Assembly (NCBI GenBank): GCA_030650395.1
Contig: JAUSDY010000074.1
Location: 62,001 to 126,000, forward strand
Length of the DNA stretch: 64,000 bases
From: Acidobacteriota bacterium
GTDB taxonomy: Bacteria > Acidobacteriota > Vicinamibacteria > Vicinamibacterales > UBA2999
Direction of reading: 5' to 3'
Both the position numbers and the translations under genes were made by a program. The stretch's first letter is position 1. Each line of letters starts with the position of its first letter. Below are positions 10,670 through 49,200 of the stretch, piece after piece. Under the pieces are notes generated by a model that ran no database searches, was not told the origin of the DNA, and worked only from the letters and a program-made list of their open reading frames with translations.

Positions 10670-10738
10670 GGTGAGAAGTCGGAAGTGAGAAGTTAGAAGC
10701 TTTCTCACTTCATACTTCTCACTTCTCACTTTCGCTTC
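10670..10738. repeat. GAGAAGT 7-bp array, two inverted halves
   Basis: The left half reads GAGAAGT-like units, the right half ACTTCTC units, so the region can fold into a hairpin between two convergent genes. The stop codon of the cytochrome (10726-10728) and its last residues lie in the right half. Confidence 0.85.
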
Positions 10739-12999
10739 TCGGCCTCAGCGATGAGCTGATCGATGTTGGGGTAAGAAGGCTCGATCGATCGAGCCTTCTT
10801 CCACATCTCCACCGCCTCCACAAACCGGCCTTCCCGGGCCAACAGCACGCCTTTCACCACCCACGGAAACGCATACTCCGGCTGCACCGCGACCGCCTTG
10901 TCGAGCGCGTCGCGGGCCTGGACGATGTTGCCGCGCTCGGCTTCGATCCAGCCTTTGGCGGCGTGGTTGGATGCCACGTCGGGGAACATGTCGAGGCTGA
11001 GGATGTATTCCTCTTGCGCGCGGCGCAGCGCCTGGCCGGCATTGCCCGGCAACTCGACGACGCCGAACAAGACGAGCACTTCGGCGGCGCGGGCGCGGAC
11101 CACGCGCGTTTGATCGACCAGGCGCGCCAGCACCGGGCCCAGCGCGCGCTCGCGATCGCCGATCGTGCCGAGCGCCTTCAACGCCGCGGCGCGCACCACG
11201 GGCTCCGGATCATCGGCGGCGCCGATCAGCGAGTTGACGATCACCGGCGTCACCTGCGGCGGAACCCTCGTGGGGAACCCCCGTGAGGAACCTCCGTCGA
11301 GAACCCCCGTCGAACCCCCGGCAAACGCTGTCTGCGCTTGCATCGATCCGCTGCGCTGCGCGCTGTCGGAGCGGCCTTCGAAAATCAGCCGCGCGATGAA
11401 TTCGGCGGCGCTCGCCCGCACCAGCAGGCCTTGCGATCGATCGACCGCCAGCCTCGCCAACCCCGGCAGCGTGGCCGGGTCGCCGGAACCGGCGCGATAC
11501 ATCGTGTCGGCGAGCGACACGGCCTTGCTGCGCCGATCGCCGTCGCCCCACCATTCGTTCATCTGCTTCGCCGCCCATTCAGGCGACTTGTTGTCGTGGC
11601 ACGTGGTGCAGGCGTTAGGCACGCCGAACTGCGCGGTGTTCTCAGGCACGGGCGGCTGGAACGTGTGATCGCGCCGGCGGATCAGCAGCCGCCAGTTCAC
11701 ATCACTCATGTGACAGCTGATGCAGCGGCTGCCCGCTGAGTCGGCGTTGTGATGCGTGTGTTGCTCGAGGGCCGCGCCGACAAATGAGGGCTTGAGGGCT
11801 TGCGGGCTTGAGGGCTTGAGCTCCCGGTTCCCCGCTCCCGGTTCCCGTCGCGATTCTGTATGACACTGCGTGCACAGCGAGTCGCCGTTGCGGCCCTGGT
11901 TGATGTTCACCTTCAATGAGAAATCATTTCTCGATCCGTGCGCGACGTGGCAATTGGTGCACACGATCGCGCCGGCCTTGAAGCAGCCGCTCAGCGTGAG
12001 CGCCTGCGGGCGGTTGAAGCGATTGGGCCGGCCGTCGGGCCAGAACTCGCCCTGTAGATCGTGGGGCGGGATCGGCTCGCTGATTAGCATCGGCAGCGCG
12101 TAGTCGGCAAACCGGTCGCCGCCCTTGAAGCCGACAAACACGTTGGTCTTGTTGCCATGGCAGTACGCGCACGTGTCGTAGACGCGCCGCGGCTCGGAGC
12201 TGCGGGTCGAGAAGATCTTCAGGATGTCGCTCAACTGCCGGTTCTTTGAGCTGTTGTCGTAGGCGGGTTTCGACGCCGGATCCTTCTCCCACCGCGCCAT
12301 CGTCGCCACGTGCTCGCGGCCGGGGCCGTGGCACGCTTCGCAGCCGATGCCCATCTCGGTCCACGATGTTCTGTAGGCCTTCGCGGCGACGTCGAAGCCC
12401 TGCACGATGTTGGTGCCGTGGCAGTTGAAGCAGTTGATGTTCCAGATCTGCCGGATGTCGTGCGGGGTGTCGGGGATCGGCGTGATCTCTTTCCAGTCGA
12501 TCCACCGCTTGGTCGCGATGTGCCAGAACGCGGGCAGCACGTAGATGCTGCCGTCGGGCAGCGTCGATAGATACCCCTGGTAACGCTTGGCGCCGAGCGT
12601 GTAGTCGATCGGAAACGTTTGCGGCGGCGCGGTGCCGAAGGCGACCGTCATGAACGGCTTGCCGTCTTTCATGCCGAGCGTGTACGAGCGATCGTGATCG
12701 GTGAAGCGCGTGCCGTCGCTGAAGTCGCCGGCGATGGCCGCTTCGGCGATCGGCTTGGTCATCTTGACGTGAAGCGAGTTGCGCCACTGCTGATGCTCGA
12801 CGTCGTGACAGCGCGCGCAGGACGCGGAACCAAGATAGTCGTCAGCCGCGGAACTAAAGTTCCGCGCTACAGGCACTTGGGCAATCGCGGCAGCAACGTT
12901 CCGCGCGACAGGCAAACGATCAGGCTGGGATGCGCGCACGGCCAGCGTGAGCAGCAGCATCGCGCTTGCGCCGCAGACGAGGCGGGCCCCGGAGGTCAT
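10726..12999 (-). CDS. Octaheme c-type cytochrome with HEAT and TPR repeats
   Basis: 757 residues. A signal peptide leads to eight CxxCH motifs: CARCH (residue 61), CFNCH, CEACH, CAYCH, CTNCH, CTQCH, CISCH and CTTCH, all in the first 480 residues. Residues around 490-650 form HEAT-like helices with a repeat-derived insertion, and the C-terminal 100 residues carry TPR-like helices ('GNIVQARDALDKAVAVQPEY'). It is a periplasmic multiheme electron-transfer protein; the redox partner and any catalytic role are unknown. Unusually, four regions of the protein are encoded by repeat elements found between genes elsewhere: residues 29-48, an insertion before heme 7, a Gly/Pro insertion in the HEAT part and the C terminus. 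Confidence 0.92.
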   Translation of the reverse strand: MTSGARLVCGASAMLLLTLAVRASQPDRLPVARNVAAAIAQVPVARNFSSAADDYLGSASCARCHDVEHQQWRNSLHVKMTKPIAEAAIAGDFSDGTRFTDHDRSYTLGMKDGKPFMTVAFGTAPPQTFPIDYTLGAKRYQGYLSTLPDGSIYVLPAFWHIATKRWIDWKEITPIPDTPHDIRQIWNINCFNCHGTNIVQGFDVAAKAYRTSWTEMGIGCEACHGPGREHVATMARWEKDPASKPAYDNSSKNRQLSDILKIFSTRSSEPRRVYDTCAYCHGNKTNVFVGFKGGDRFADYALPMLISEPIPPHDLQGEFWPDGRPNRFNRPQALTLSGCFKAGAIVCTNCHVAHGSRNDFSLKVNINQGRNGDSLCTQCHTESRREPGAGNRELKPSSPQALKPSFVGAALEQHTHHNADSAGSRCISCHMSDVNWRLLIRRRDHTFQPPVPENTAQFGVPNACTTCHDNKSPEWAAKQMNEWWGDGDRRSKAVSLADTMYRAGSGDPATLPGLARLAVDRSQGLLVRASAAEFIARLIFEGRSDSAQRSGSMQAQTAFAGGSTGVLDGGSSRGFPTRVPPQVTPVIVNSLIGAADDPEPVVRAAALKALGTIGDRERALGPVLARLVDQTRVVRARAAEVLVLFGVVELPGNAGQALRRAQEEYILSLDMFPDVASNHAAKGWIEAERGNIVQARDALDKAVAVQPEYAFPWVVKGVLLAREGRFVEAVEMWKKARSIEPSYPNIDQLIAEAEKRK
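11261..11322. repeat. 13-bp repeat array inside the octaheme cytochrome gene
   Basis: Five units of the GGAACCCTCGTGG type (reverse complement of the GGTTCCTCACG word). Translated on the minus strand it gives 'GSTGVLDGGSSRGFPTRVPP', a low-complexity insertion in the HEAT region. Confidence 0.8.
11785..11858. repeat. GAGGGCTT and CCCGGTTCCCG arrays inside the octaheme cytochrome gene
   Basis: Four units of GAGGGCTT followed by CTCCCGGTTCCCCG-type units. Encodes 'REPGAGNRELKPSSPQALK' between the sixth and seventh heme motifs. The GAGGGCTT word recurs at 26669-26710 and inside qhpG. Confidence 0.8.
12847..12916. repeat. GCGGAACTAAAGTTCCGC palindrome inside the cytochrome gene
   Basis: A perfect copy (12847-12870) of the palindrome found as an inverted pair at 46586-46654, followed by a degenerate copy. 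It encodes the two 'PVARN' segments just after the signal peptide. Confidence 0.85.
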
Positions 13000-13126
13000 C
13001 GAGGGACATTATCCACCTTCGCCCCGCACTCCTTGGGGGCTTCGGTGGACAGGTCCACCTTCGTAGGCAGCCTGCCTCGCCGTAGCCGCGGACATGAATG
13101 CTTTCTGCGGCGAAGGCGGGCGGAGC

Positions 13127-13155
13127 AAAAAAAAGGGCCCTCATTCTGAGGGCCC
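13127..13155 (-). terminator. Rho-independent terminator
   Basis: Hairpin GGGCCCTCA-TTC-TGAGGGCCC followed on the minus strand by eight T. It ends leftward transcription from the tryptophan dioxygenase remnant. The rest of 13000-13359 shows no gene. Confidence 0.85.
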
Positions 13156-13359
13156 CTCGAGCCAGCGGCCTAGTCAGCCTGGCTCAAAAAGTCGCTGACT
13201 CCTGTGGGGGACGGCAACTGTTTCACCCTCCATAGAGCAAGCGACGTGCCGACCGCTGCGGCGCTCACATCCGCTGAAATGGGCGGAAACCCGAGGGGGT
13301 GGGATGGTCCCAAAGCCCTGAATCCAAGCGATTGAAAGGCGCGACTCCGGGGGTATGGA

Positions 13360-13906: not shown

Positions 13907-13922
13907 CCAGACAGCTTATCTA

Positions 13923-13990
13923 GGTTCAGAAGGGTTCTGAAGGGTTCTGAAAGGTTCTGAAAGGTTCTGAAAGGTTCTGAAAGGTTCAGG
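13923..13990. repeat. GGTTCTGAAA 10-bp array
   Basis: Six to seven units of GGTTCTGAAA (first ones GGTTCAGAAG). It separates the dioxygenase remnant from the four-helix-bundle gene, whose stop codon (13986-13988) lies in the last unit. An inverted counterpart is at 14516-14554. Confidence 0.9.
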
Positions 13991-14375: not shown

Positions 14376-14515
14376 GCGGAGGTGTAAGCATGGCTAATGC
14401 CGACAGCCCTCCGAAGGCGACTGAACCCTTCTGAGCGGTTCCTGAAAGTTCTGAGGGTTTCGGGAGTTCTGCGGTGGGCAAACGCTACCCAGGTGGGAAG
14501 TTGCTACTCGCGCCG

Positions 14516-14554
14516 GTTAGAACCTTTCAGAACCTTTCAGAACCTTTCAGAACC
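14516..14554. repeat. AGAACCTTTC 10-bp array
   Basis: Four units, the reverse complement of the word at 13923-13990. It lies just downstream of the terminator of the TonB receptor gene. Degenerate units (TTCTGAGCGGTTCCTGAAAG) are seen at about 14419-14475. Confidence 0.9.
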
Positions 14555-14595
14555 AAAAAAAATGGCGGGGGGCGCCGGCGTAGCGCCCTCCCGCC
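14555..14595 (-). terminator. Rho-independent terminator of the TonB receptor gene
   Basis: On the minus strand a GC-rich stem (GGCGGGAGGGCGC with GCGCCCCCCGCC, loop TACGCCG) is followed by ATTTTTTTT. It lies about 30 bases past the receptor stop codon. Confidence 0.85.
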
Positions 14596-14623
14596 TAAAC
14601 GACTCCCCCACAGGAGTCGAGCT

Positions 14624-17464: not shown

Positions 17465-17668
17465 GCTTTCCTCCTCCAATGTGGGGGCCGACCCGGGGGC
17501 CAGGTCCCTTTGACACAAATGCAAAAACGAACCTGCAACGATTAGCCGACAATCGCCAACGAACCTCAGTACAGAAGTGACGAACCCTGACGGGCGAGGT
17601 AACCGACACGATACAGAAAAGGAGGGACCGGATGCAAATAGAGACATTTGAACGAGCGTTCAAGACAA

Positions 17669-17792
17669 GGGTTCCCAACGAGGGTTCCTCACGAGGGTTC
17701 CTCACGGGGGTTCCTCACGAGGGTTCCTCACGGGGGTTCCTCACGGGGGTTCCCGACGGGGGTTCCCCACGCAGGTTCCGTACGAGGGTTCA
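17669..17792. repeat. 13-bp tandem array (GGTTCCTCACGRG)
   Basis: About nine units, best preserved at 17690-17745; three units make a 13-residue period if translated. It lies between the receptor gene and the EamA gene, and the EamA stop codon (17790-17792) is in the last unit. Confidence 0.92.
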
Positions 17793-18656
17793 GGCGAAAC
17801 GCGTGATGAGTAGCCCGGTGAGGATGGCCCCGGCCCCGATCATCTGGTTGCCCGATACCGGCTCGCCGAGCCAGAACGCCGCGACGATCATCGCCACGAT
17901 TGGCGTCAGATAGCTGTACATCGAGGTCCGCGTGCCGCCGAGTTTTTGCAGGCCGGTGTACCAGATCACGTACGAGACGTTGAGGGCGAGCACCGCCGAG
18001 AGAAACATCAACACCCAGCTCGCGCTCGAGATCGAGGTCCACTCGATCTTCACGAGCCACGGCGCGGTGAACAAGAGATACAGCAGGGCGCCGATCGAAA
18101 ACGACGTGCCGGTCACGGCCAGCGGCGAATGCCGCTTCAGCAGCGGCTGCGCGGCCACCGAATACGTGGCCCAGAACACCATGCTCGCGATCACCATGCC
18201 GTCGCCGAAGAGCGATTCCGCCGACCAGTCGGCACGGTGGCCGACGACGAAGTAGAGACCACCAAAGCCGAGCGCCACACCGAACCACCGCCGCGGCGGC
18301 ACCCGCTCGTGGCCGGCAAACGACGACATCAGCGCGATCAGGATCGGTGTGGTGCCGACAATCAGCGAGGCGTTGCCGGCGCTGGTCCGCTTCAGCCCGC
18401 CAACGAACAGGAACTGATACACGAACGTGCCGACGACGCCGAGGAAGACGAGGCGGATCCAGTCGGCGCGGGAGAACGACGGCCGCGTCCGCGACGCCCC
18501 GATCACCGCGACAAACACGACGGCGCTCGTCAGCATGCGCATCGCGTTGAAGGCCAGCTCGGGGAAATCTCTGAGGGCCACTTTCACCAGGGAAAAGTTC
18601 GTGCCCCAGATCAGCACCATCAATAAGAGCAGCCCGTCTAACGCGGTCAACGCCAT
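17790..18656 (-). CDS. EamA/DMT family transporter
   Basis: 288 residues, ten transmembrane segments in two EamA repeats. Conserved features: 'LIWGTNFSLVKVAL' near the start and 'YVIWYTGLQKLGGTRTSMYS' before helix 9. Drug/metabolite exporters of this type carry amino acids or related metabolites; substrate unknown. It has repeat arrays at both ends: the 13-bp array at its stop and the AAAGTTG array just before its start. Confidence 0.9.
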   Translation of the reverse strand: MALTALDGLLLLMVLIWGTNFSLVKVALRDFPELAFNAMRMLTSAVVFVAVIGASRTRPSFSRADWIRLVFLGVVGTFVYQFLFVGGLKRTSAGNASLIVGTTPILIALMSSFAGHERVPPRRWFGVALGFGGLYFVVGHRADWSAESLFGDGMVIASMVFWATYSVAAQPLLKRHSPLAVTGTSFSIGALLYLLFTAPWLVKIEWTSISSASWVLMFLSAVLALNVSYVIWYTGLQKLGGTRTSMYSYLTPIVAMIVAAFWLGEPVSGNQMIGAGAILTGLLITRFA

Positions 18657-18658
18657 CG

Positions 18659-18850
18659 CAAGTTGAAAGTTGAAAGTTGGAAGTCTAAAGTTTCAGTTTC
18701 AAGTTCAGTTTTAGGTTTTAAGTTTCCAGTTTCAAGTGCCAGAAATAGAAAGGGGCGCGACCGAAGGCCCCGCCCCGCCAACTTGAAACTTCAAACTGAA
18801 CTTAAAACTGAAACTTCCAACTTTCAACTTTCAACTTTCAACTTTAAAGT
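18659..18850. repeat. AAAGTTG array, long imperfect palindrome
   Basis: The left side reads AAAGTTG/AAGTTTCAG-type units and the right side CAACTTT/AACTTGAAAC units, so about 190 bases fold back on themselves around a GC-rich centre near 18765. It fills the gap between atpE and the EamA gene. Confidence 0.9.
18745..18776 (-). terminator. Probable terminator downstream of atpE
   Basis: On the minus strand GGGGCGGGGCC-TTCG-GTCGCGCCCC is followed by TTTCTATTTC. It forms the centre of the AAAGTTG palindrome. Confidence 0.55.
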
Positions 18851-18853
18851 CGC

Positions 18854-19213
18854 TCATCCACCAAACGGTTTCAGGAAGAACAGGATGAGCGAGATCAGCA
18901 GCACGTAAATCACGAGCGACTCGATCAGCACGAGGCCCAGGATCAGCGAGCCGCGAATTTCGCCAGCGGCGCCCGGGTTGCGCGCGATCGCTTCGGTGGC
19001 CGACGCCACGGCCATGCCCTGGCCGATTGCAGCGCCGACGGCGGCGATGGCCAGCGCGAAACCGGCGGTGACGATCGACCACTGAACCAGGCCGGAGTCG
19101 GCGCCCGCCGCAGCGGCTTCCTGGGCGTAGACCGGCGCGGCCAGGCCGAGGATCACGAATCCGAACATCAACGACAAAACGCACCGACTTGTTCTCACGG
19201 GAAACGCCTCCAT
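18854..19213 (-). CDS. atpE: ATP synthase subunit c
   Basis: 119 residues from the ATG at 19213. Residues 1-31 look like a signal/extension ending 'APVYAQ', a feature of several acidobacterial c subunits, and the two-helix hairpin follows. Helix 1 has 'GAAIGQGMAVASATEAIARN' with the polar loop 'RNPGAAG'; helix 2 has the ion-binding Glu in 'GLVLIESLVIY'. The Gln in helix 1 with Glu-Ser and a Tyr five residues after the Glu resembles sodium-binding c rings. It overlaps the atpI-like gene by 19 bases; no subunit a gene lies between. Confidence 0.92.
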   Translation of the reverse strand: MEAFPVRTSRCVLSLMFGFVILGLAAPVYAQEAAAAGADSGLVQWSIVTAGFALAIAAVGAAIGQGMAVASATEAIARNPGAAGEIRGSLILGLVLIESLVIYVLLISLILFFLKPFGG

Positions 19214-19572
19214 CGCAAACCCCTCAGCGCTTCGACCGCGACCGCGGCTCCGAGCGATGAAACGCCCATCAGCATGGCCACCGGGTCGACGCGCAAACGC
19301 ACCATCATAACGTAGGCTGCGAGAGCCAGAATAGCATGTCTTGTGAAAAACTTCACTAGCTGGAAACGGGCCTTTTTTCTGGGCGTTTCGCCGCCAGATC
19401 GGCTTCGGATCAACGCGTCGACTATGCCCTGTATCGCCCAAAATGCCAGTGCTATCAGTAGCCCGCCTCCAGCGACGCCTAAGGGTGTGGAGAGATCGCG
19501 CCTCCAAAAGGCTGCGAGCGCGATCATGACAACACAAATGATCGTCGCGTCGCGGGCGACTCTCTCGATCAT
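19195..19572 (-). CDS. ATP synthase subunit I-like membrane protein
   Basis: 125 residues with four hydrophobic segments, separated by a basic loop ('RSRSGGETPRKKARFQ'). The position between an AtpZ-like gene and atpE and the shape of the C-terminal hairpin ('DPVAMLMGVSSLGAAVAVEA') fit ATP synthase protein I, which helps assemble the c ring. The family match is by pattern and context, not by a strong motif. Confidence 0.7.
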   Translation of the reverse strand: MIERVARDATIICVVMIALAAFWRRDLSTPLGVAGGGLLIALAFWAIQGIVDALIRSRSGGETPRKKARFQLVKFFTRHAILALAAYVMMVRLRVDPVAMLMGVSSLGAAVAVEALRGLRWRRFP

Positions 19573-19589
19573 GCCGGGAGGGCACTGCT

Positions 19590-19760
19590 TGACGGGATCG
19601 CAATCCTTGACGGGATTGCACTACCTGACGGGATTGCAATCCTTGACGGGAAAACGCCTCTGGGCAGAAAGTATTTTCCCGACAAGAGGTTCCCTCCCGT
19701 CAAGAAGTGCGATCCCGTCAAGAGGTGCCTTCCCGTCAAGGAGTGGTGCCTTCCCGTCAG
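19590..19760. repeat. 18-bp array (GGATTGCAATCCTTGACG) in two inverted halves
   Basis: The left half repeats TTGACGGGATTGCA-type units, the right half has CCCGTCAAG units, so the array is a large inverted repeat between the atpZ-like and atpI-like genes. An open frame through it gives only repetitive protein and is not a gene. Confidence 0.9.
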
Positions 19761-21036: not shown

Positions 21037-21038
21037 CG

Positions 21039-21959
21039 ATGCGCGCGCTCTTGATCGCGGTAGTCGTGTCGGCTGCAGCGGTGTCGGTGCCGACGGGCCA
21101 GGAGAAGAGCCAGGTCTTCCGCGCCGGCATCGACGTGGTGTCGCTCAACGTCACGGTGGTCGATAGCGCGAGCCATTACGTCACCGACCTCGAGCAAGGT
21201 GACTTCTCGGTGTTCGAAGACGGCGCCAAACAGGATCTGAACTTCTTCAACAAGACCAACCTGCCGATCGCGCTGTCGCTGCTGATCGATTCGAGCGCCA
21301 GCATGGAGCAACGGATGGAGACTGCGCAGGAAGCCGCGATCGGGTTTGCGCGGAAGATCCGGCAGCAGGACCTGGCGCAGGTCGTCGACTTCGACAGCCG
21401 CGTTGAGATCAGGCAGAGCTTTACGAATAATGTCGCGAGCCTCGAGACGGCCATCCGCAATACGTCATCGGGCGGATCCACCGCGCTGCACAACGCGGTC
21501 TACATCTCGCTCAAAGAGCTCGCGAAGGTCCGGGCGAAGAACCCCGACGAGATCCGCCGGCAGGCGATCATCCTCCTCTCCGACGGCGAGGACACCTCGA
21601 GCCTCGTCAGCTTCGAGGAAGTGCTGGAGCTGGCCAAGCGTTCCGAAACGGCGATCTACACCATCGGGTTGCAGCCGCGCGAGACGGGCGCGCTGCGCGG
21701 CTTCCGCGAAGCCGAGTTCGTGCTACGGCAACTGGCGCAGGAAACCGGCGGCCGCGCATTCTTCGCGCAACGGGTCGAAGAGCTGAAGGACGTCTACGGC
21801 CAGATCGCCGACGAGCTCTCGAGCCAGTACACGATGGGGTATGCGTCGAAGAATCCTCGCCGCGACGGCGCGTTCCGCCGCTTGGTCGTGCAGGTGGCGC
21901 GGCCGAACGTAACGCCGCGCACCAAGCGCGGCTACTACGCGCCGGTTGCTTCACGATAG
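21039..21959 (+). CDS. Exported VWA-domain protein (acidobacterial VWFA-related)
   Basis: 306 residues. Signal peptide, then 'VVSLNVTVVDSASHYVTDLE' and 'DFSVFEDGAKQDLNFF', the diagnostic prelude of TIGR03436. The metal site 'DSSASM' is intact, with a downstream 'LSDGEDTSS'. It ends with 'KNPRRDGAFRRLVVQVARP' and 'RTKRGYYAP', also family-typical. These secreted proteins are abundant in Acidobacteria; their role is unknown. It is the second of a tandem pair and ends at the TTAACTC array. Confidence 0.9.
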   Translation: MRALLIAVVVSAAAVSVPTGQEKSQVFRAGIDVVSLNVTVVDSASHYVTDLEQGDFSVFEDGAKQDLNFFNKTNLPIALSLLIDSSASMEQRMETAQEAAIGFARKIRQQDLAQVVDFDSRVEIRQSFTNNVASLETAIRNTSSGGSTALHNAVYISLKELAKVRAKNPDEIRRQAIILLSDGEDTSSLVSFEEVLELAKRSETAIYTIGLQPRETGALRGFREAEFVLRQLAQETGGRAFFAQRVEELKDVYGQIADELSSQYTMGYASKNPRRDGAFRRLVVQVARPNVTPRTKRGYYAPVASR

Positions 21960-21960
21960 A

Positions 21961-22074
21961 GTTAACAGTTAAGAGTGAAGAGTGAAGAAGGTAGCTGCAG
22001 AGCTACGCTAGAAATTCTTAACTCTTAACTCTTAACTCTTAACTCTTAACTCTTAACTCTTAACTCTTAACTCA
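21961..22074. repeat. TTAACTC 7-bp array, inverted halves
   Basis: The left part reads GTTAAGAGTGAAGAG, the centre is a small hairpin (GTAGCTGCAGAGCTAC), and the right part is about seven perfect units of CTTAACT. A shorter array of the same word is at 27681-27718. Confidence 0.92.
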
Positions 22075-22088
22075 GCTAGTATTCCCTG

Positions 22089-24602: not shown

Positions 24603-24672
24603 AAACCTCGTGGGGATAAACCTTTGGTGGGGACAAACCCACTCGTGGGGACAAACCTTTAGGTTTGTCCTT
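24603..24672. repeat. ACAAACCT..AGGTTTGT palindrome array
   Basis: Three half-copies of GGGGACAAACC and one full ACAAACCTTTAGGTTTGT. The last codons and the TAA stop of dxr (24659-24661) are inside it. Confidence 0.88.
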
Positions 24673-26661: not shown

Positions 26662-26668
26662 GGGCTAT

Positions 26669-26744
26669 CGAGGGCTTGAGGGCTTAAGGGCTCGAGGGCT
26701 TGGGGCTTGCGCGCGTTTTGCCTTCTGCCTTCTGCCTTCTGCCT

Positions 26745-26746
<2 letters not shown>
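26669..26746. repeat. GAGGGCTT array followed by GCCTTCT array
   Basis: Five GAGGGCTT-type units (26669-26710) then four GCCTTCT units (26719-26746) between uppS and cdsA. The second word returns in inverted orientation on the other side of uppS (27562-27635). Confidence 0.9.
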
Positions 26747-27561: not shown

Positions 27562-27635
27562 AGAAGGCAGAAGGCAAAAGGCAGAAGGCAGAAGGCAAAA
27601 GGCAGAAGGCAGAAGGCAGAAGGCAGAAGGCAGAA
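27562..27635. repeat. AGAAGGC 7-bp array
   Basis: About ten units of AGAAGGC/AAAAGGC upstream of uppS. Confidence 0.92.
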
Positions 27636-27672
27636 ACAAAAAGACCGGCCCGGAGACGTCTCCAAGCCGGTC
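27636..27672 (-). terminator. Rho-independent terminator of the NHL-propeller gene
   Basis: Stem GACCGGC (27666-27672 on the minus strand) with GCCGGTC (27643-27649), then TTTTTG. An inner GGAGACGTCTCC adds to the stem. It lies about 45 bases past the stop codon of the gene to its right. Confidence 0.85.
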
Positions 27673-27680
27673 ATTTCCCT

Positions 27681-27718
27681 GTTAACTGTTAACTCTTAAC
27701 TCTTAACTCTTAACTCTT
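27681..27718. repeat. TTAACTC 7-bp array
   Basis: Five units ending one base before the stop codon of the NHL gene. Same word as 21961-22074. Confidence 0.9.
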
Positions 27719-29024: not shown

Positions 29025-30431
29025 ATGTCGAGCACGCGAATCACCAGCATACTGTTGATCCGATTGGGCGTGGTGACGGCCCTGCTCGTCGCCTTGGCGC
29101 CGCGCCTCGCGGCCCACGAAGTCCCGAACGAGGTCACCGTTTTCGGGTTCGTACGGCCCCAGGCTCAGACCCTCACGCTGCTGCTGCGCGTGCCGCTCAA
29201 GTCCCTCAGGGACATCGACATACCAACCTACAGCAACGGGTTTCTCGATTTCTCCCGGGTCGACCAGGCCCTGAAGGACGCCACGACTCTCTGGCTCCGC
29301 GACTACATCGAGCTGTACGAAGACGGCCGCCGCCTGGCCGCCCCCGTGACGACCGCGACGCGAGTCTCGCTGCCGTCCGATCGCTCCTTCGACTCGTTCG
29401 ACACCGCGCTTGCCAACCTCATCAGCGGACCGCGCCTCGGGCAGGAAACGCAAATCTACTGGGAACAGGGCATGCTCGACGTCGCGCTCGAGTACGCCAC
29501 CTTGTCCGACCAGTCGGACTTCGCCATTCGTCCGGGCCTGACGCGGCTCGGCCTGCGGGTGAACGTCATATTGCGCTTCTTGCAGCCAGGCAAGTCCGAA
29601 CGCGTCTTCGACGTCCACGCCGACACCGGCATCGTCCATCTGGATCCACGCTGGCACCAGGCGTTCTACCTGTTTGCGAAGGAAGGTTTCTTTCACATTC
29701 TCGACGGGATCGATCACCTGCTGTTCCTGTTGTGCCTGGTGATCCCGTTCCGCCGCTTTCGCCCGCTCGTGGTCGTGATCACGGCATTCACCGTGGCGCA
29801 TTCGGTGACACTCATCGCCTCCGCCTACGGGATGGCGCCAAACAGCCTGTGGTTCCCGCCGCTGATCGAAACGCTGATCGCGATCTCGATCCTCTACATG
29901 GCCTTCGAGAACATCATCGGCGCCAGGCTGGAGCGCCGCTGGGTCATGACCTTCGGCTTCGGGTTGATCCACGGCTTCGGGTTCTCGTTCCTGCTGCGCG
30001 AGCGGCTGCAGTTTGCGGGAGAGCATCTCGTCACGTCGCTGCTGGCCTTTAACGTGGGAGTCGAGATCGGCCAGCTGCTCGTGCTCGTGATCACGATTCC
30101 ACTGCTCACGCTGATCTTCCGGTTTGTCGTGGCGGAGCGGATCGGCACCATCCTGATGTCGGCGCTGGTCGCGCACACGGCGTGGCACTGGGCAACCGAG
30201 CGCGGCGCTCGGTTGCTGCAATATCGCTGGACCGGGATCGAAATGTCGGATGTCGCCGCCTTCTTGCGACTCGCGATGGTGATCGTCGCCGCGGGATTTC
30301 TGATGTGGCTGATGTCGCTCTGGATAGGCGGTTCCTCTTGGATAGGTGGTTCCTCACGGAGGTTCCGTACGGAGGTTCCTCCCGATGGTTCCGACGGCGG
30401 TTCTGCGAACCCTCGTAAAGAACCTTCGTAA
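29025..30431 (+). CDS. HupE/UreJ-like membrane protein
   Basis: 468 residues from the ATG at 29025. Signal peptide to 'LAAHEVPNE', a periplasmic domain of about 190 residues, then a seven-helix HupE/UreJ_2 domain: 'FHILDGIDHLLFLLCLVIPF', 'AFTVAHSVTLIASAYG', 'FGLIHGFGFSFLL' and 'AFNVGVEIGQLLVL'. Relatives are linked to nickel or other metal handling, but most members are uncharacterised. The final 35 residues ('WIGGSSRRFRTEVPPDGSDG') and the stop come from a GGTTCCTCACG repeat array, so the native protein probably ended near residue 430. Confidence 0.85.
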   Translation: MSSTRITSILLIRLGVVTALLVALAPRLAAHEVPNEVTVFGFVRPQAQTLTLLLRVPLKSLRDIDIPTYSNGFLDFSRVDQALKDATTLWLRDYIELYEDGRRLAAPVTTATRVSLPSDRSFDSFDTALANLISGPRLGQETQIYWEQGMLDVALEYATLSDQSDFAIRPGLTRLGLRVNVILRFLQPGKSERVFDVHADTGIVHLDPRWHQAFYLFAKEGFFHILDGIDHLLFLLCLVIPFRRFRPLVVVITAFTVAHSVTLIASAYGMAPNSLWFPPLIETLIAISILYMAFENIIGARLERRWVMTFGFGLIHGFGFSFLLRERLQFAGEHLVTSLLAFNVGVEIGQLLVLVITIPLLTLIFRFVVAERIGTILMSALVAHTAWHWATERGARLLQYRWTGIEMSDVAAFLRLAMVIVAAGFLMWLMSLWIGGSSWIGGSSRRFRTEVPPDGSDGGSANPRKEPS

Positions 30432-30465
30432 GGGAACCCTCGTCCGGAACGCTCGTGAGGAACTA
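30329..30465. repeat. 13-bp array in two inverted halves between hupE-like gene and truA
   Basis: The left half has GGTTCCTCACGGA-type units, the right half GGAACCCTCGTCC-type units. Both convergent genes end inside it (stop codons at 30429-30431 and 30463-30465). Confidence 0.9.
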
Positions 30466-36979: not shown

Positions 36980-38578
36980 ATGCGTTTTGACAAGCGATTT
37001 TGCGCCCGGATGGCCGTGGCGACCGGCCTGATGGCGTCGGTGGTGTCCGTTTTCGGGCTGTCGGCTGTTCACGCCCAGACAACGGCGGCAACAGCCCCGG
37101 GTGCCCAGGCGCCCGTGCGGCGCATGAGCATCGATGATGCGGTGGCGACCGCCCTGGAACAGAATCTCGACCTGCAGGTGCAGCGCATCAATCCGCAACT
37201 GCGCGACCTCGATACCAGTGTGTTCCAGGCTAGCTACACGCCGAACTTCGTGTCGACGCTCAGCACATCCGACTCGAGGCAGCCGTCGACGAGCGTCCTC
37301 TCGGGCGCGGCCACCGGCATCACCCTGGGCCAGTCGCTGGCCAACGCCGGCGTGAGCTCACTGACGTCCTGGTACGGTGGCAGCTACGACGTGCGGTGGA
37401 ACAACAACCGCAACACGACCAACAACCAGTTCTCGACGTTTAATCCGCAGTTGACCTCGTCGGTGAGCGCCTCGTACGTCCAGCCGCTGTTGCGCAACTT
37501 CAGGATCGACGGCACCCGCCAGCAGCTGCTGGTGAGCCAGAAGAACAAGGAGATTTCGGACGTTCAGCTGCTGCAATCGATCGCCGTCACGGTGCGCAAC
37601 GTCAAGAACGCGTACTACGACCTGATGTATGCGATCGGCAATCTCGGCGTGCAGCGGCAGTCGCTCGACTTGGCGCGGCAGTCGCTCAAGGACAATCGCG
37701 CCCGCGTCGAGATCGGCACCATGGCGCCGCTCGACATCGTGCAGGCGGAAGCCGAAGTGGCGACCCGCGAAGAATCGGTGATTCTCGCGGAAGCGGCGAT
37801 CGAGCGCGCGCAAGACACCGTCCGCACGCTCGTCTACAACCCCGCGCAGCCGGACTTCTGGAGCGCGCGCCTCGAGCCCACGGAAACGGTGACGTTCGTG
37901 CCGACCACGGTCGATGTCGACGCGGCGGTGAGAAACGCGCTCAGCCAGCGCACCGACATCACCGCGGCGCGCAAGTCGCTCGAGGCCAACGACGTCAACA
38001 TCCGCTACTTCCAGAACCAATCGCTGCCTGACGTGACCGCGCAGGTCAATTACAACGCGCGCGCCACCGGCGGTCTGCAGGTCACGCGAGGCCGCGACCC
38101 GGCCACGGGCTTTCCCAACGACCAGATCCTGTCGAGTGTTGGGAGGAGCTTCTTCAGCACGCTCGGCAACACGTTTGCGGGCGACTTTCCGGGCTGGTCG
38201 CTGCAGGTGGATATCGCCTACCCGCTTGGACGGTCGAGCACCGAGGCGCAGCTCACCCGCGCGCGGCTGCAGAACACCCAGGCCGAAAAGCAGCTGGCGG
38301 TCACCGAGCTGCAGGTCGCGTCGCAGGTGCGCGAGTTCGCGCGCCAGGTGCAGACCAACGCCAAGCGCGTCGACGCGACCCGGTCGTCGCGGGTGCTGGC
38401 CGAGCGCCGGCTCGAAGCGGAAGAGAAGAAATACCAGGCAGGCATGACGAGCAGCTTCTTCGTGCTGCAGGCGCAGCGCGACCTGAACCTCGCGCGCAAC
38501 AGCGAGCTGCTCGCGCTCGTCGAGTACGCGAAGTCGGTCGTCAACTACTCCGCCGTGCAACAGGCGCCGCTCTTCTAG
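36980..38578 (+). CDS. TolC-family outer-membrane channel protein
   Basis: 532 residues from the ATG at 36980 (a GTG sits directly before it); GGAG lies nine bases upstream. Signal peptide to 'AVHAQ'. Two TolC/OEP halves are seen as 'MSIDDAVATALEQNLDLQVQ', 'NAYYDLMYAIGNLGVQRQSL', 'APLDIVQAEAEVATREESVI' and 'FVLQAQRDLNLARNSELLAL'. It forms the outer-membrane duct of an efflux or export system, but the inner-membrane partner is not adjacent. The stop codon is followed at once by a 10-bp repeat array. Confidence 0.92.
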   Translation: MRFDKRFCARMAVATGLMASVVSVFGLSAVHAQTTAATAPGAQAPVRRMSIDDAVATALEQNLDLQVQRINPQLRDLDTSVFQASYTPNFVSTLSTSDSRQPSTSVLSGAATGITLGQSLANAGVSSLTSWYGGSYDVRWNNNRNTTNNQFSTFNPQLTSSVSASYVQPLLRNFRIDGTRQQLLVSQKNKEISDVQLLQSIAVTVRNVKNAYYDLMYAIGNLGVQRQSLDLARQSLKDNRARVEIGTMAPLDIVQAEAEVATREESVILAEAAIERAQDTVRTLVYNPAQPDFWSARLEPTETVTFVPTTVDVDAAVRNALSQRTDITAARKSLEANDVNIRYFQNQSLPDVTAQVNYNARATGGLQVTRGRDPATGFPNDQILSSVGRSFFSTLGNTFAGDFPGWSLQVDIAYPLGRSSTEAQLTRARLQNTQAEKQLAVTELQVASQVREFARQVQTNAKRVDATRSSRVLAERRLEAEEKKYQAGMTSSFFVLQAQRDLNLARNSELLALVEYAKSVVNYSAVQQAPLF

Positions 38579-38733
38579 GAAGGTTCAGAAGGGTTCAGAA
38601 AGGTTCCGAAGGGTTCAGAGGGGTTCGAACCTTTCAGAACCTTTCAGAACCTTTCAGAACCTTTCAGAACCTTTCAGAACCTTTCAGAACCTTTCAGAAC
38701 CTTTCAGAACCACTCAGAACCCTTCAGAACCGA
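38578..38733. repeat. 10-bp array (GGTTCAGAAG / AGAACCTTTC) in inverted halves
   Basis: Five units in GGTTCAGAA orientation then about eleven in TTCAGAACCT orientation, forming a very long hairpin of 150 bases. It fills the gap between tolC and the GT2 gene. Confidence 0.93.
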
Positions 38734-40613: not shown

Positions 40614-41745
40614 TTGGGGTCAGGTCAAGAAAATCACAGTTTGGGATGACTGGGGACAGGTCACACAGCCCGAATGACGTCACGAGCGCCGCAGATTCTT
40701 CCACGCCGTCGGCGCGACTCTGATTCAGTTTCTGCAACTCGGCAGACCCGTCATCTTGAATGTCGGCCTGTTTTTGATGATTTGGCAGCGGCCCGCCCTT
40801 TGAAGGTGTCGAGGCATGCCTCGACGACCTCGACTCCAACCTCCGGGCGCGATCCATCACGTAATGTCTCGCGGTAATCGCAAGTCCTCGATCTTCGAGG
40901 ACGATTATGACCGCGATCGCTTTCTCGATATCGTCAGGGACGCCTGTGAGAGTTACGCAGTTCTCTGCCTGGCGTATTGCCTGATGGGAAACCACTACCA
41001 TCTGGTTCTTGAGCCGCCGCGCTCCAATCTGTCATGGATGATGCGGGACGTGAACGGCGAATACGCGCAGTACTCGAATCGGCGGCATGGCCGCACCGGC
41101 CACGTCTTCGAGGGTCCATTCACGTCGATACCGGTCGAGAACGACCACTACTTACGAACGGTCGTGAAATACGTGGTCACGAATCCGATCGCCGCCGGTC
41201 TTGTGCAAGACGCCTCGGGCTGGGATTGGAGCAGCTATCGCGCAACCGCGGGACTGTCTGAACCGCCGGTATTTCTCAATCTCGATTGGATGGAAGTTAT
41301 TTTCGGAAGCCACGCAGGGCCTGAATGTCAAGCCAGGTACCGCACCTTCATCGACGAACCGTTCAACATCAATGATGAAAAGCAACTCGAACTGTTGATG
41401 GGATCGCCCGCCTTTGAAATCTCCGTTCGCTCTTACGTTGGGGCCTCCATGTACAGGATGGCGCTGCCGAAGGCCTACCGTGCGCTCGCCAGGCCCACCT
41501 TGGCGAATCTGTTCAGCACTGTTGGCTGGACGAGGCCGGAACGAGATCAAATGATTCGCCGGGCGCACGTACTGCACGGTTATCAGTTGTCAGAAATTGC
41601 AACCTACCTGGGAATGCATCCCAACAGCATGAGCAAGGTCCTGAGGCGCCTCAAGGACATCAGATCTGGAACCGCGAGGGCAAAGTCAAATGGGACCTGT
41701 CCCTAATCATCCCAAACTGTGATTTTCTTGACCTGACCCCAATCA
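40611..41745 (+). mobile_element. RAYT-type element with 52-bp terminal inverted repeats
   Basis: The left end (40611-40662) and the right end (41694-41745) are inverted copies: TGATTGGGGTCAGGTCAAGA, then AAATCACAGTTTGGGATGA, near-perfect, then a less exact GGGACAGGTC. They enclose one transposase gene. The insertion sits exactly between the ends of two convergent genes. Confidence 0.88.
40816..41706 (+). CDS. REP-associated tyrosine transposase (Y1 HUH family)
   Basis: 296 residues. HUH motif 'LMGNHYHLVLEPP' (H-Y-H) and the catalytic-Tyr region 'VKYVVTNPIAAGLV', with the family's 'PGAIHHVMSRGNRKSSIFED' at the start. The C-terminal 60 residues have a helix-turn-helix ('YQLSEIATYLGMHPNSMSKV'), a feature of the longer RAYTs. 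These enzymes cut single-stranded DNA at REP-type hairpins; the inverted repeats at its ends are the likely targets. It appears intact. Confidence 0.93.
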   Translation: MPRRPRLQPPGAIHHVMSRGNRKSSIFEDDYDRDRFLDIVRDACESYAVLCLAYCLMGNHYHLVLEPPRSNLSWMMRDVNGEYAQYSNRRHGRTGHVFEGPFTSIPVENDHYLRTVVKYVVTNPIAAGLVQDASGWDWSSYRATAGLSEPPVFLNLDWMEVIFGSHAGPECQARYRTFIDEPFNINDEKQLELLMGSPAFEISVRSYVGASMYRMALPKAYRALARPTLANLFSTVGWTRPERDQMIRRAHVLHGYQLSEIATYLGMHPNSMSKVLRRLKDIRSGTARAKSNGTCP

Positions 41746-41749
41746 TCAC

Positions 41750-42397: not shown

Positions 42398-42416
42398 GTG
42401 CCTCGCCTGACCAATG

Positions 42417-42503
42417 GACAAACCTAAAGGTTTGTCCCCACCTGTCTCATGGGGCGGTTTGTCCCCACGGACAAACCTAAAGGTTTGTCCCCACCTGTCT
42501 CAT
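42417..42503. repeat. Tandem ACAAACCTAAAGGTTTGT palindromes
   Basis: Two nearly identical units of ACAAACCTAAAGGTTTGTCC followed by CCACCTGTCTCATGG, between the M28 peptidase and the ankyrin gene. The peptidase stop is at 42500-42502. Confidence 0.92.
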
Positions 42504-44007: not shown

Positions 44008-44109
44008 CGACCGAATCGTAACCCGATGGGAACCTTGATGGCCGTCCGGCCGTAATTGGTGTCTAACGCCCTCAAGGTCTCTAAAGGGAGAAATAGGGAG
44101 AACTGCGTC

Positions 44110-46569: not shown

Positions 46570-46585
46570 TCGCGCGTGGCGTCCA

Positions 46586-46654
46586 TCGCGGAACTAAAGT
46601 TCCGCGCTACGGGGTTCTGAGGTTTCGATGTAGCGCGGAACTTTAGTTCCGCGA
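46586..46654. repeat. Perfect 25-bp inverted repeat between convergent genes
   Basis: The left arm (46586-46610, TCGCGGAACTAAAGTTCCGC...) and right arm (46630-46654) are exact reverse complements, and each arm is itself a palindrome. The qhpE stop TAA (46643-46645) is within the right arm. It may terminate transcription from both sides. Confidence 0.93.
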
Positions 46655-47401
46655 TCCAACCGCGCGCATCAGCCGCTCGGCGGGAGACTCGTTGCCAGAC
46701 TCCAGCGCGAGCAAGCCGGCAAGCACCCCGGTGGCGTTGGCGACTGCGAAGCTCAGGCCTTTCAGATTCTTATCCGGAGGAACACCCGGGATTGGTCGCG
46801 GAAAGCCCGAGGCCTGAAAAGTCACAGAGCCGTCCGCTCCGAATATGACGTGCGCCTCTTCGCGCGGGATCGACCAATCGAGCGAGACGCTCCACACTCC
46901 GGGCAGCGATCCGGGCAGCCAGCGTCCGCCTCCGCTCGCACGGATTCCGGCGAGCTTCGGCGAGACCTCGCCGTAGCGGCCTTCGGCCGCGAAGGCGGGA
47001 GCGCCGTTTTCAGGACCGGCGGCGATCACAATCGCGCCGGCGGCTCGAAGCTTCCGAACGACATCAGCAAGCGCCGGCTCGTGATCAGTGTTGAGCGTGC
47101 CGAGGCTGAGATTGACGAGGTGCGCGCCTTCACGGAGCGCCCACTCGCAGGCCGCGACCAGCGCCACGCCAGTTGCCGCGAGCTCGCGATCGAAGACCTT
47201 GACGGCGAGGATCTGCGCGTCGGGCGCTTTCTCGCGAATGACGGCGGCGACCGCCGTGCCGTGCCCGAGCCGATCGACATAGTCGTCGTGCTCGTGCCCC
47301 TCTGAATCGATGCCAACTCCGCCGGCAACGCCGTTGACATGCGGATGCGATGCGTGCACGCCGCTATCGATGATGGCCACGCGTACGGCGCCGGCGGTCA
47401 C
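46643..47401 (-). CDS. qhpE: QHNDH gamma-subunit leader peptidase, subtilisin-like (QhpE)
   Basis: 252 residues with no export signal. Catalytic triad visible: D12 in 'IIDSGVH', H47 in 'RLGHGTAVAAV' and S217 in 'GLSFAVANATG' (in place of GTSxAxP). Established work on Paracoccus shows QhpE is a cytoplasmic subtilisin-like protease that removes the leader of the crosslinked gamma subunit before export. The small size and position after the exporter gene fit this. It starts by ATGA overlap with qhpF. The final residues and stop come from a palindromic repeat. Confidence 0.9.
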   Translation of the reverse strand: MTAGAVRVAIIDSGVHASHPHVNGVAGGVGIDSEGHEHDDYVDRLGHGTAVAAVIREKAPDAQILAVKVFDRELAATGVALVAACEWALREGAHLVNLSLGTLNTDHEPALADVVRKLRAAGAIVIAAGPENGAPAFAAEGRYGEVSPKLAGIRASGGGRWLPGSLPGVWSVSLDWSIPREEAHVIFGADGSVTFQASGFPRPIPGVPPDKNLKGLSFAVANATGVLAGLLALESGNESPAERLMRAVGSRN

Positions 47402-49125
47402 GCCCCGACGCTCGACGGGCGATCGATCTCGAAGAGCGTCGCGAACACGCCAGGCCGCGCCGCCAGCTCGTGCGGCCGCCCTTCGTCGACGACCCTCGCG
47501 CCATCGAGCACCACCACGTAATCCGCGGCCATCGCCAGCTCGCGCCGGTGCGTGATGAGAATCGTCGTCCGGCCGCGCATCACGGCTTGATAGCCGTCGA
47601 TCACCTGGCGCTGCGCCAGCGCATCAAGCGCCGCGGTGGGTTCGTCGAGCACGAGCACCGCGGGGTCGGCGAGAAACGCGCGGGCCAGCGCGATGCGCTG
47701 CCGCTCACCCGCCGACACCGCCAGGCCGCGCTCGCCGACGAGCGTCTGGTAGCCGTGCGGCAACGCGTCGACAAAGCGCGCGATGCCCGCGGCTTCGGCG
47801 GCCCGCCGCACCTCGGCATCACTCGCCTCCGGCCTGACGTAGCGGATGTTCTCGGCCACGGTCGCGTGCAGCAGCGTGGGTTCCTGCTCGACCAGCACGA
47901 CATGCCGTCGCAGATCGTCGAGCTTCAGCGTGCGCAGATCGTGGCCGTCGAGGCGGACGACGCCGCTGTCGGGGTCGAGCATGCGCGTCACCAGGTAGGC
48001 GATGGTGGACTTGCCGACACCGCTGCCGCCCACGAGCGCCACCGTCGTGCCGCGGCGCGCCACGAACGACACGGCGTCGAGCACGCGCAGATCTCTCTCG
48101 GTGGTGAGCGTCACCGACTCGCAAACAATGTCGCCACGCACGGACGGCAATGCCGTCGCATCCGGCGACTCGATCACGTCGACGGGGGCGTCGAGGATCT
48201 CGCGGACGCGGGCCCAGGAGACGCGCGCGGTGGCGAGGCTGGCATACAACCCCATCAGCGCCTGCGCCGGCGCGAAGACGCGCATCTGGTACGCGAGGAA
48301 CGCGCCCAGCGTGCCGAGCGTGAGCGTGCCGTCGATCACGCGCCAGCCGCCGTAGAAGAACGCGATCGACGAACCGATCGACAGCAGCGTGCCCGGCAGG
48401 CCGCCGGCGAAATACGTGACGCGCTGCATCTTCATCAACGCGTCGATGAAGCGGCCGTTCAGGCCGCGAAACCGCGCCCGCTCGCGCCCTTGCGCATTGG
48501 CCGCCACGACCATCGACATCGCTTGCAGTGTTTCGATCAGGAAGCTGCCGATGTCGGCGCTCCGCTGGCGCAGCTCCGCGACGCGGCCTTCGAGGCGGCG
48601 GCGATAGAACCCGAGCGCCAGCAGGCTGAGCGGCATCGGCGCCAGCGCGACGAGCGACAGCCGCCAGTCGAGCCAGACCATCATCACGAGGCTGCCGGCC
48701 AGGAACAGCACGTTGCCGACCCACGCCAGCGCCGCTTCCGCCGCGACCCGCTGGATCTCGCTGATGTCGTTGTTGAGGCGCGAGACGATGTCGCCGAGCC
48801 GCGTGCGCGCGAAGAAACGGGGCGACAGCCGCTGCAGATGTTCGTACACCGACAACCGCATGTCGAACAGGATCTCCGCCGAGACGCGCGTGTAACGAAG
48901 CCCGCTCACGACGTTGAGGAGGAAGCCGAACAGGCCAAGCGCGATGAACCAGCCGACCATGCGGCGCAAGGCGTCGAGATCGCGGCCGATCAGCGCGGTG
49001 TCGATCAGGTCCTTCGAGAGGTAGGGAATCGCTAACGTCGTCGCGGTGCTGATCAGGCTGATCAGCAGCACGAGCACCAGGCGCCGCCAGTACGGAACGA
49101 GATAGGCGAACGCGCGGCGGTCCAT
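47398..49125 (-). CDS. qhpF: ABC exporter of the QHNDH gamma subunit (QhpF)
   Basis: 575 residues, six transmembrane helices followed by an ATPase domain. Walker A 'VGGSGVGKST', signature 'AVSAGERQRIALARAF' (the usual LSGGQ is VSAGE), Walker B 'AVLVLDEPTAALD'. No peptidase domain, consistent with cleavage by the separate QhpE. In known systems QhpF moves the processed gamma subunit to the periplasm. It is the sixth gene of the qhp run, 44 bases after qhpB; that gap holds AAAGTTG and ACTTCTC arrays. Confidence 0.9.
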   Translation of the reverse strand: MDRRAFAYLVPYWRRLVLVLLISLISTATTLAIPYLSKDLIDTALIGRDLDALRRMVGWFIALGLFGFLLNVVSGLRYTRVSAEILFDMRLSVYEHLQRLSPRFFARTRLGDIVSRLNNDISEIQRVAAEAALAWVGNVLFLAGSLVMMVWLDWRLSLVALAPMPLSLLALGFYRRRLEGRVAELRQRSADIGSFLIETLQAMSMVVAANAQGRERARFRGLNGRFIDALMKMQRVTYFAGGLPGTLLSIGSSIAFFYGGWRVIDGTLTLGTLGAFLAYQMRVFAPAQALMGLYASLATARVSWARVREILDAPVDVIESPDATALPSVRGDIVCESVTLTTERDLRVLDAVSFVARRGTTVALVGGSGVGKSTIAYLVTRMLDPDSGVVRLDGHDLRTLKLDDLRRHVVLVEQEPTLLHATVAENIRYVRPEASDAEVRRAAEAAGIARFVDALPHGYQTLVGERGLAVSAGERQRIALARAFLADPAVLVLDEPTAALDALAQRQVIDGYQAVMRGRTTILITHRRELAMAADYVVVLDGARVVDEGRPHELAARPGVFATLFEIDRPSSVGA

Positions 49126-49131
49126 CGGTGA

Positions 49132-49200
49132 CAGTTGAAAGTTGAAAGTTGAAAGTTAGAAAATACTTCTCACTTCTCGCTTTTCACTTCTGACCTCTTC
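49132..49200. repeat. AAAGTTG array next to ACTTCTC array
   Basis: Four AAAGTTG units (49132-49158) then four ACTTCTC-type units (49164-49200). The end of qhpB ('RSEVKSEK' and its stop at 49170-49172) is encoded by the second array. Both words occur elsewhere in the window (18659, 10670). Confidence 0.9.

What the first reader, a model, noticed from the sequence alone, without database searches (positions are those of the whole stretch)
10670..49200. Most intergenic gaps hold a tandem word array, each with a different 7-18 bp unit, often as an inverted pair
Units seen: GAGAAGT (10670), GGTTCTGAAA (13923, 14516, 38578), GGTTCCTCACGRG (17669, 30329), AAAGTTG (18659, 49132), 18-bp GGATTGCAATCCTTGACG (19590), TTAACTC (21961, 27681), AGAAGGC (26719, 27562), GAGGGCTT (26669). 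In at least six loci the first half is in one orientation and the second half in the other, giving a hairpin up to about 190 bases. The words are unrelated in sequence but share this architecture. I know of no named element class that behaves so. Replication slippage could spread a word within an array, but not make the matching inverted half or the same word at distant sites.
Basis: seen in the sequence. Interest (0 to 1): 0.8.

Follow-up and report, generated by a model that had tools for sequence, protein, structure and literature searches.

The report
Swappable repeat-word hairpins at gene ends
In this Acidobacteriota genome about a quarter of the longer gaps between genes in the part sampled hold a short DNA word repeated head to tail, in a quarter of cases as two mirror halves predicted to fold into a hairpin, and related species carry different words in the same gap; the arrays likely grow by replication errors and likely serve, or are tolerated, as gene-end hairpins.

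Summary
The arrays are real: a 464-kb sample of the genome, window included, gave 145 tandem-repeat rows against 11 in a shuffle. All named words are in place and six window loci are inverted pairs. 'Most gaps' just holds in the stated range (14 of 26 gaps of 40 bp or more) but not in the sample (61 of 226). Words recur: 44 heptamer entries use 17 words, giving 72 same-word pairs against about 0.8 expected. Arrays abut stop codons (median 4 nt), avoid divergent gaps (2 of 43) and fold better than array-free gaps. In eight genomes of the genus, of 43 species pairs with arrays in both copies of an orthologous gap, 9 share a word.

The class has known relatives: cyanobacterial STRRs, TAACTGA repeats, and Xanthomonas GGGAATC arrays, which also form inverted pairs (PMC4692102). 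New here are the many words and periods in one genome and word replacement at fixed sites. Slippage alone explains neither inversion nor dispersal. A reverse transcriptase, RAYT copy number and SbcCD loss were tested and not supported. Arms of one locus match no better than arms of other loci with the same word.

The parts
10671..10740 (.). GAGAAGT heptamer inverted pair (arms 10673-10699 / 10715-10740) between convergent genes
   Evidence: TRF; arms
13922..13987 (+). 10-mer array AGGTTCTGAA, 6.6 copies
   Evidence: TRF
14519..14554 (-). 10-mer array (GGTTCTGAAA on the minus strand); on that strand it follows a stem and T8 tract of the upstream gene
17668..17791 (+). 13-mer array GGTTCCTCACG.., 9.5 copies, no inverted half
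18659..18848 (.). AAAGTTG heptamer inverted pair, arms of 65 nt at 88% identity, loop of 55 nt
19572..19759 (.). 18-mer (2 x 9) inverted pair, arms of about 85 nt at 77%
21958..22073 (.). GAGTTAA / TTAACTC inverted pair; in five sister species the same gap carries other words
24607..24660 (+). 17-18-mer array containing GTGGGGACAAACC; may be a different, REP-like element
26670..26746 (.). GAGGGCTT octamer array followed by TGCCTTC heptamer array; gap is 6-10 nt and array-free in G003, G004, G006, G008
27562..27718 (.). AGAAGGC array, a terminator-like stem, TTAACTC array (two different words)
30348..30463 (.). 13-mer GGTTCCTCACGGA inverted pair
38573..38731 (.). 10-mer GGTTCAGAAG / GAACCTTTCA inverted pair starting 4 nt after a stop codon
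49129..49191 (.). AAAGTTG array then ACTTCTC array (two words); the flanking genes overlap with no array in G001, G004, G008
8461..8517 (-). 13-mer array inside a gene, in the linker between beta-lactamase and NamZ domains
11261..11320 (-). 13-mer array inside a gene, between the multiheme cytochrome part and HEAT repeats

Best explanation
These are families of short tandem-repeat words (7-18 bp) that sit mostly just after genes, often as mirror-image arms predicted to fold into hairpins, and that likely grow by replication slippage and likely spread between gaps by ectopic copying of array segments. Shown: excess over chance, recurrence of few words, position next to stop codons, avoidance of divergent gaps, outward strand rule, inverted pairing, and different words in the same orthologous gap of sister species. 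Inferred: units of 7 nt or more would escape mismatch repair (recalled: MutS acts on small loops), so slippage would expand and shrink the arrays; template switching at fold-back structures would make the inverted half; array-to-array copying would seed new gaps and replace words; and gene-end hairpins would be tolerated there, or kept as two-way terminators or 3'-end protectors. The copying step and the function are untested.
For: 145 rows against 11 shuffled. 72 same-word heptamer pairs against about 0.8 expected, with a composition-aware null maximum of 4 in 500 draws. Median distance to the stop codon 4 nt in the 56 of 85 arrays whose nearest gene edge is a stop; 2 of 43 divergent gaps against 59 of 183 others, Fisher p 9e-5. 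The purine-rich strand points away from the nearest gene in 57 of 85 arrays and in 35 of the 45 with clear skew. Gaps with arrays fold better than dinucleotide shuffles: median z -4.29, 26 of 41 below -3, against -0.86 and 17 of 111 in array-free gaps, plus strand only. 14 of 36 syntenic gaps hold an array in the window's genome; 11 of these lack one in at least one congener, 4 of them in a gap of 20 nt or less. 43 species pairs with arrays in both, 9 sharing a word. Copying of segments: one identical 31-nt composite arm at two unlinked loci (L226, L227) and a 28-nt irregular composite at three (L229, L232, L233). MutS found in 10 of 10 genomes.
Against: Arms of one locus match no better than arms of other loci with the same word (0.58, n=16, against 0.57, n=38), so recent fold-back copying is not shown in general; only some loci mirror irregular units. 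Unit order along arms is weakly polar at best (13 against 4 loci, p 0.049; two of the other three comparisons run the other way or even, none significant). Arrays are not closer to terminator-like stems than random intergenic places. No transcription data. The same word in distant lineages is not explained by within-genome copying alone.
Confidence: 0.42

Rival explanations
1. Mobile palindromic elements (REP/BIME or MITE-like) moved by a Y1 (RAYT) transposase, later expanded by slippage.
For: A Y1_Tnp gene is in the window (40855-41178 match) and in 10 of 10 genomes searched. Families have recurring inner ends: GAGTTAAGAA at 20 places, then unrelated loops. Some composite arms are shared between loci.
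Against: The window's genome has one Y1_Tnp match but 12.9 non-triplet clusters per 100 kb; G007 has 13 matches and 11.3, G004 6 and 4.4 (samples of 115-464 kb). Many different words would need one enzyme. No target-site duplication or element boundary was found by eye in the loci printed; this was not tested formally.
Confidence: 0.15
2. Functional terminator or 3'-end hairpins under selection; words are interchangeable because only the fold matters.
For: Position after stop codons, avoidance of divergent gaps, strong folding. At gap 21959-22107 six of six species have arrays; three of them (G000, G006, G007) form inverted pairs with different words. Array presence co-occurs between species: 43 pairs observed against about 25 expected from prevalence (arithmetic, uncorrected for kinship or gap type).
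Against: Half or more of the arrays have no inverted half. Some arrays sit in gaps that are 6-10 nt, or negative, in sisters, where a terminator between the genes is unlikely. Purely permissive sites would give the same co-occurrence.
Confidence: 0.25
3. A dedicated writer, such as a telomerase-like reverse transcriptase of the DRT10 kind, adds the words.
For: DRT10 is reported to make tandem-repeat DNA (PMC12632851, search listing and start of abstract only). The window's genome has one RVT_1 match, G000:C113.
Against: RVT_1 is found in 1 of 10 genomes searched; nine have none, array-rich G001 and G007 among them. The one match was not studied further. A divergent RT below the Pfam cut-off is not excluded.
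Confidence: 0.05
4. Assembly artefact.
For: The genome is a 180-contig draft; no reads were available.
Against: Arrays occur inside contigs, in independent genomes at orthologous gaps, and at similar density in G038, a single 7.48-Mb contig.
Confidence: 0.03

Closest known systems
GGGAATC / GGGGA(C/T)T heptamer arrays of Xanthomonas and Nostoc (Rehm et al. 2015, PMC4692102; passages and discussion seen)
   Same: Intergenic tandem heptamers; inverted pairs (70 and 75 in two Xanthomonas genomes); few between divergent ORFs; G-rich strand on the coding strand after ORFs or the non-coding strand before them; no function shown.
   Different: One G4-forming word per genome there; here many words and periods (7, 8, 9, 10, 13, 18) in one genome. 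There most sites keep the repeat between two species (83% in the same gene context); here the word is usually replaced.
STRR sequences of cyanobacteria (passages of PMC2670836; the original 1990 paper was not held)
   Same: Tandem, usually 7-bp units, intergenic, some forming hairpins.
   Different: Longer periods also occur here; another phylum.
TAACTGA direct repeats (MacGregor 2015, PMC4679880; abstract, introduction and one results section seen)
   Same: Intergenic heptamer arrays with patchy phylogenetic distribution and no known transfer mechanism.
   Different: There mostly just upstream of start codons and one word, one indirect repeat; here mostly next to stop codons, with many inverted pairs.
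Borg tandem repeats (PMC9879509; abstract and passages seen)
   Same: Fast-evolving intergenic and intragenic tandem arrays.
   Different: Said to arise independently, with perfect units; here words recur across loci and inverted pairs are common.
REP / BIME elements (PMC3733652, search listing only)
   Same: Intergenic, palindromic, many copies.
   Different: REPs are single 20-40 bp palindromes; here arms are tandem words of variable number.

Membership tests
STRR / intergenic heptamer arrays | Tandem units, usually of 7 bp, at many intergenic places | tested here: met
   46 of 129 TRF rows have period 7; 26 places for TTAACTC x3
STRR / intergenic heptamer arrays | Restricted to 7-bp units | tested here: not met
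   8-, 9-, 10-, 13- and 18-mers also present; STRR membership therefore covers only the heptamer part
Xanthomonas-type inverted heptamer pairs | Two arrays of one word in opposite orientation in one gap | tested here: met
   17 of 68 clusters against 5 of 139 array-free gaps
Xanthomonas-type inverted heptamer pairs | G/purine-rich strand pointing away from the ORF; divergent gaps avoided | tested here: met
   35 of 45 skewed arrays outward; 2 of 43 divergent gaps. 5' arm has G>C in 41 of 55 pairs, one G007 locus counted twice
Xanthomonas-type inverted heptamer pairs | G-quadruplex-forming word; site and word conserved between species | tested here: not met
   9 of 43 pairs share a word; most words printed lack GGG runs; quadruplex formation itself not tested
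REP/BIME with RAYT | Y1 transposase in the genome | tested here: met
   10 of 10 genomes
REP/BIME with RAYT | GTAG or CGTC tag at the foot of a single hairpin | not tested
   No tag search was made
Telomerase-like RT product (DRT10) | Reverse transcriptase in genomes with arrays | tested here: not met
   RVT_1 in 1 of 10 genomes
Functional transcription terminator | 3' ends or reduced read-through at the hairpin | not testable with these tools
   No RNA data

The most novel reading that the evidence does not exclude
Each word is a self-spreading DNA unit without genes of its own: a hairpin of repeat words that copies itself from gap to gap on host replication machinery, blooms in one lineage, is overwritten by another word in the next, and reappears in distant families (AGAAGGC in five scattered Acidobacteriota genomes with 25-216 hits, none in 25 intermediate relatives of the family and order that were sampled). 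It would be the smallest kind of selfish repeat, competing for gene-end niches.
Probability: 0.2. Interest if true: 0.82.

Novelty: new variant of a known kind. Interest (0 to 1): 0.5.

Why it matters
Heptamer arrays were noticed in several bacterial groups, with no function and no spreading mechanism established in the papers seen. Here eight genomes of one genus hold the same gaps with and without arrays and with different words, so gain, loss and replacement can be followed site by site. If words replace each other while the gene-end hairpin stays, the fold rather than the sequence may be what counts; if not, the arrays are a tractable case of gene-less repeats spreading in a bacterium.

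Tried and rejected
Telomerase-like writer: RVT_1 in 1 of 10 genomes. RAYT as driver: Y1_Tnp number does not follow array density. Loss of hairpin nuclease SbcCD: no SbcD match in 8 of 9 congeners, but G118 has SbcD over the cut-off and 4 of 5 clusters inverted, so loss is not needed. G038 has SbcD and 4 of 37 inverted, against 18 of 60 in G000, so a weaker role is open. Loss of MutS: found in 10 of 10, 9 over the cut-off. Arm-to-arm copying at each locus: negative in the general test. Arrays anchored to terminator T-tracts: stem energy of flanks no better than background; T-rich flank 18% against 5% for TTAACTC, n=28, but the word itself is T-rich. Recurring flanks around TTAACTC: small excess, explained at least in part by variant units next to the runs. 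Rfam: one tRNA only in the window. Literature: six searches; none listed a paper on such arrays in Acidobacteriota, which is not proof of absence, as most subscription papers are not held.

Limits: counts rest on home-made gene calls and on a sample of about 9% of the genome, chosen as the window plus two long contigs that carry TTAACTC. The orthologous-gap calls use a lower TRF threshold (36) without a shuffle control of their own. Congeners are related, so pairs are not independent. The statement that only three of six species at 21959-22107 form clear inverted pairs comes; G004 is weak, G001 and G005 have none. In some searches the reversed-word control is clean in the window's genome but not elsewhere: the reversed TTAACTC word itself has 885 hits in G118 and 47 in G086.

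Full report
What was checked. The window lies in contig C1 (62001-126000) of a 5.41-Mb, 180-contig draft. The best named matches of its UppS protein are MAGs called Acidobacteria; the genus itself is unnamed to me. TRF finds arrays at the stated places. In 464 kb (window plus twenty 20-kb stretches of two contigs) there are 145 rows at score 50 or more against 11 in a first-order Markov shuffle made in 1-kb blocks; period 7 gives 29 against 0. At score 40, periods 6-20 and at least 2.7 copies, 129 rows against 5 merge into 96 clusters.

How common. Arrays are in 14 of 26 gaps of 40 bp or more inside 10670-49200 and in 16 of 42 in the window, but in 61 of 226 in the sample. So the stretch read first is richer than average. 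29 of 96 clusters are inside called genes; many of these have periods of 9, 12 or 15 and look like ordinary coding repeats.

Words. 44 heptamer word-locus entries use 17 of 1172 possible classes; 72 same-word pairs against 0.79 on average, maximum 4, in 500 composition-matched draws. Frequent words are AACCAAT (7 clusters), AACTCTT, AAGGCAG and AACTCTG (6 each). Variants mix in one array (GAGTTAA, GAGTTCA, GAGTGCA). One 31-nt composite arm is identical at two unlinked loci and one irregular 28-mer occurs at three, which suggests that segments longer than one word are copied between places.

Position and strand. Of 85 single arrays outside genes, 56 have a stop codon as the nearest gene edge, at a median of 4 nt; 29 have a start, at a median of 17 nt. 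The purine-rich strand runs away from the nearest gene in 57 of 85 (p 0.002) and in 35 of 45 with clear skew (p 0.00025); the arrays are not all independent. Divergent gaps are avoided: 2 of 43 against 59 of 183 (Fisher p 9e-5).

Hairpins. 17 of 68 intergenic clusters reach an inverted-alignment score of 40, none of their shuffles on average, and 5 of 139 array-free gaps. Gaps of 60-300 bp with arrays have a median folding z of -4.29 (26 of 41 below -3) against -0.86 (17 of 111) for array-free gaps; Mann-Whitney p 1.7e-5 without divergent gaps. The 5' arm has more G than C in 41 of 55 pairs over eleven genomes and is purine-rich in 38 of 55, 20 of 21 in the window's genome but 1 of 4 in G038 and 2 of 7 in G007; one G007 locus is counted twice.

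Are the arms copies of each other? Some loci say yes: irregular units are mirrored at L036 15018-15100, L032 6913-6998 and window 18660-18844, and in G003 at the gap orthologous to 18656-18854, score 99 against a shuffle maximum of 18. But over five families the arms of one locus score no better against each other than against arms of other loci with the same word, 0.58 (n=16) against 0.57 (n=38). So the inverted half may have arisen by fold-back copying, but later change is mostly independent, or both arms came from the same pool.

Orthologous gaps. The region is collinear in G001, G004 and G007, and in part in G003, G005, G006 and G008. Over 36 gaps with at least two species, 43 species pairs have arrays in both, 108 in one and 232 in neither; 9 of the 43 share a word within one mismatch. 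For the closest pair, G000-G001, it is 3 of 7. At 21959-22107 six of six species have arrays: GAGTTAA in G000, CAAGCCCC in G001, CCCAAGT in G004, CCCGGAT in G005, GGGCTTGA with CCAAGTCC in G006, and GATCAACA in G007. G000, G006 and G007 form clear inverted pairs there, G004 a weak one, G001 and G005 none. At 26661-26745 four species have 6-10 nt and no array while G005 has an inverted pair. At 49125-49170 the genes overlap in G001, G004 and G008. Two arrays lie in protein linkers, and other species carry other sequence there.

Across the phylum. (TTCTGCC)x3 is in 11 of 297 genomes, with 25 or more hits in five (G000 67, G007 25, G130 78, G299 43, G324 216); it is absent in three congeners (G002, G003, G008), five other genomes of the family and twenty of the order in that draw. 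(TTAACTC)x3 is in 3 of 297, more than once only in G000; the reversed word, meant as a control, has 885 hits in G118 and 47 in G086. Inverted pairs make 7 of 11 clusters in 40 kb of G324 and 4 of 5 in 20 kb of G118. Each lineage thus seems to have its own words, and one word can bloom in distant lineages.

Mechanism. Shown are the statistics above. Inferred: slippage changes copy number, helped by units too long for mismatch repair (recalled, not tested; MutS is present); fold-back template switching gives the inverted arm; copying between arrays moves words. Position, strand rule and folding fit gene-end hairpins that act in both directions, or sites where such hairpins do least harm; these two cannot be separated without RNA data. 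A reverse transcriptase writer, RAYT copy number and SbcCD loss were tested and are not supported as causes.

Comparison with print. PMC4692102 reports the same position, strand rule, divergent avoidance and inverted pairs for one heptamer in Xanthomonas; PMC2670836 reports 7-bp STRR hairpins in cyanobacteria; PMC4679880 reports TAACTGA arrays with patchy distribution. Hence new variant of a known kind. The differences are the many words and periods in one genome and the replacement of words at fixed sites.

Noticed in passing
window 40864-41706: Y1_Tnp (RAYT-like) gene, the only Y1_Tnp match in this genome; a relative at 42-57% identity lies in the matching place in five congeners.
   Followed up: partly
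window 42416-42494 and 24607-24660; L044 11425-11481; L049 3192-3246: GTGGGGACAAACC palindromic repeats, one set about 0.7 kb from the Y1_Tnp gene; they look REP-like and may be a separate element from the word arrays.
   Followed up: no
window 46585-46655: Perfect 26-bp inverted repeat with a 19-nt loop.
   Followed up: no
window about 39.0-39.1 kb: A repeat shared with L033 and L048 (CACGCGGACTTTGCGTGG...) lies inside a glycosyltransferase-like coding stretch and is absent from the sister sequences printed.
   Followed up: no
window 8461-8517 and orthologous linkers: The beta-lactamase/NamZ linker holds a 13-mer array here and other sequence in sisters, including RLKADAT / RLKPDTT-like peptides in G004.
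   Followed up: partly
G118 and G086: The word CTCAATT, used only as a reversed control, has 885 and 47 hits in these genomes; L240 shows it as inverted pairs.
   Followed up: partly
gap orthologous to window 25879-25882 in G001, G004, G005, G006: About 180-300 nt with GCAGATT-type 9-mer words at both ends around an inner hairpin, where this genome's genes overlap by 4 nt.
   Followed up: no
G000:C113:127-528: Single reverse transcriptase (RVT_1) match in the genome.
   Followed up: no
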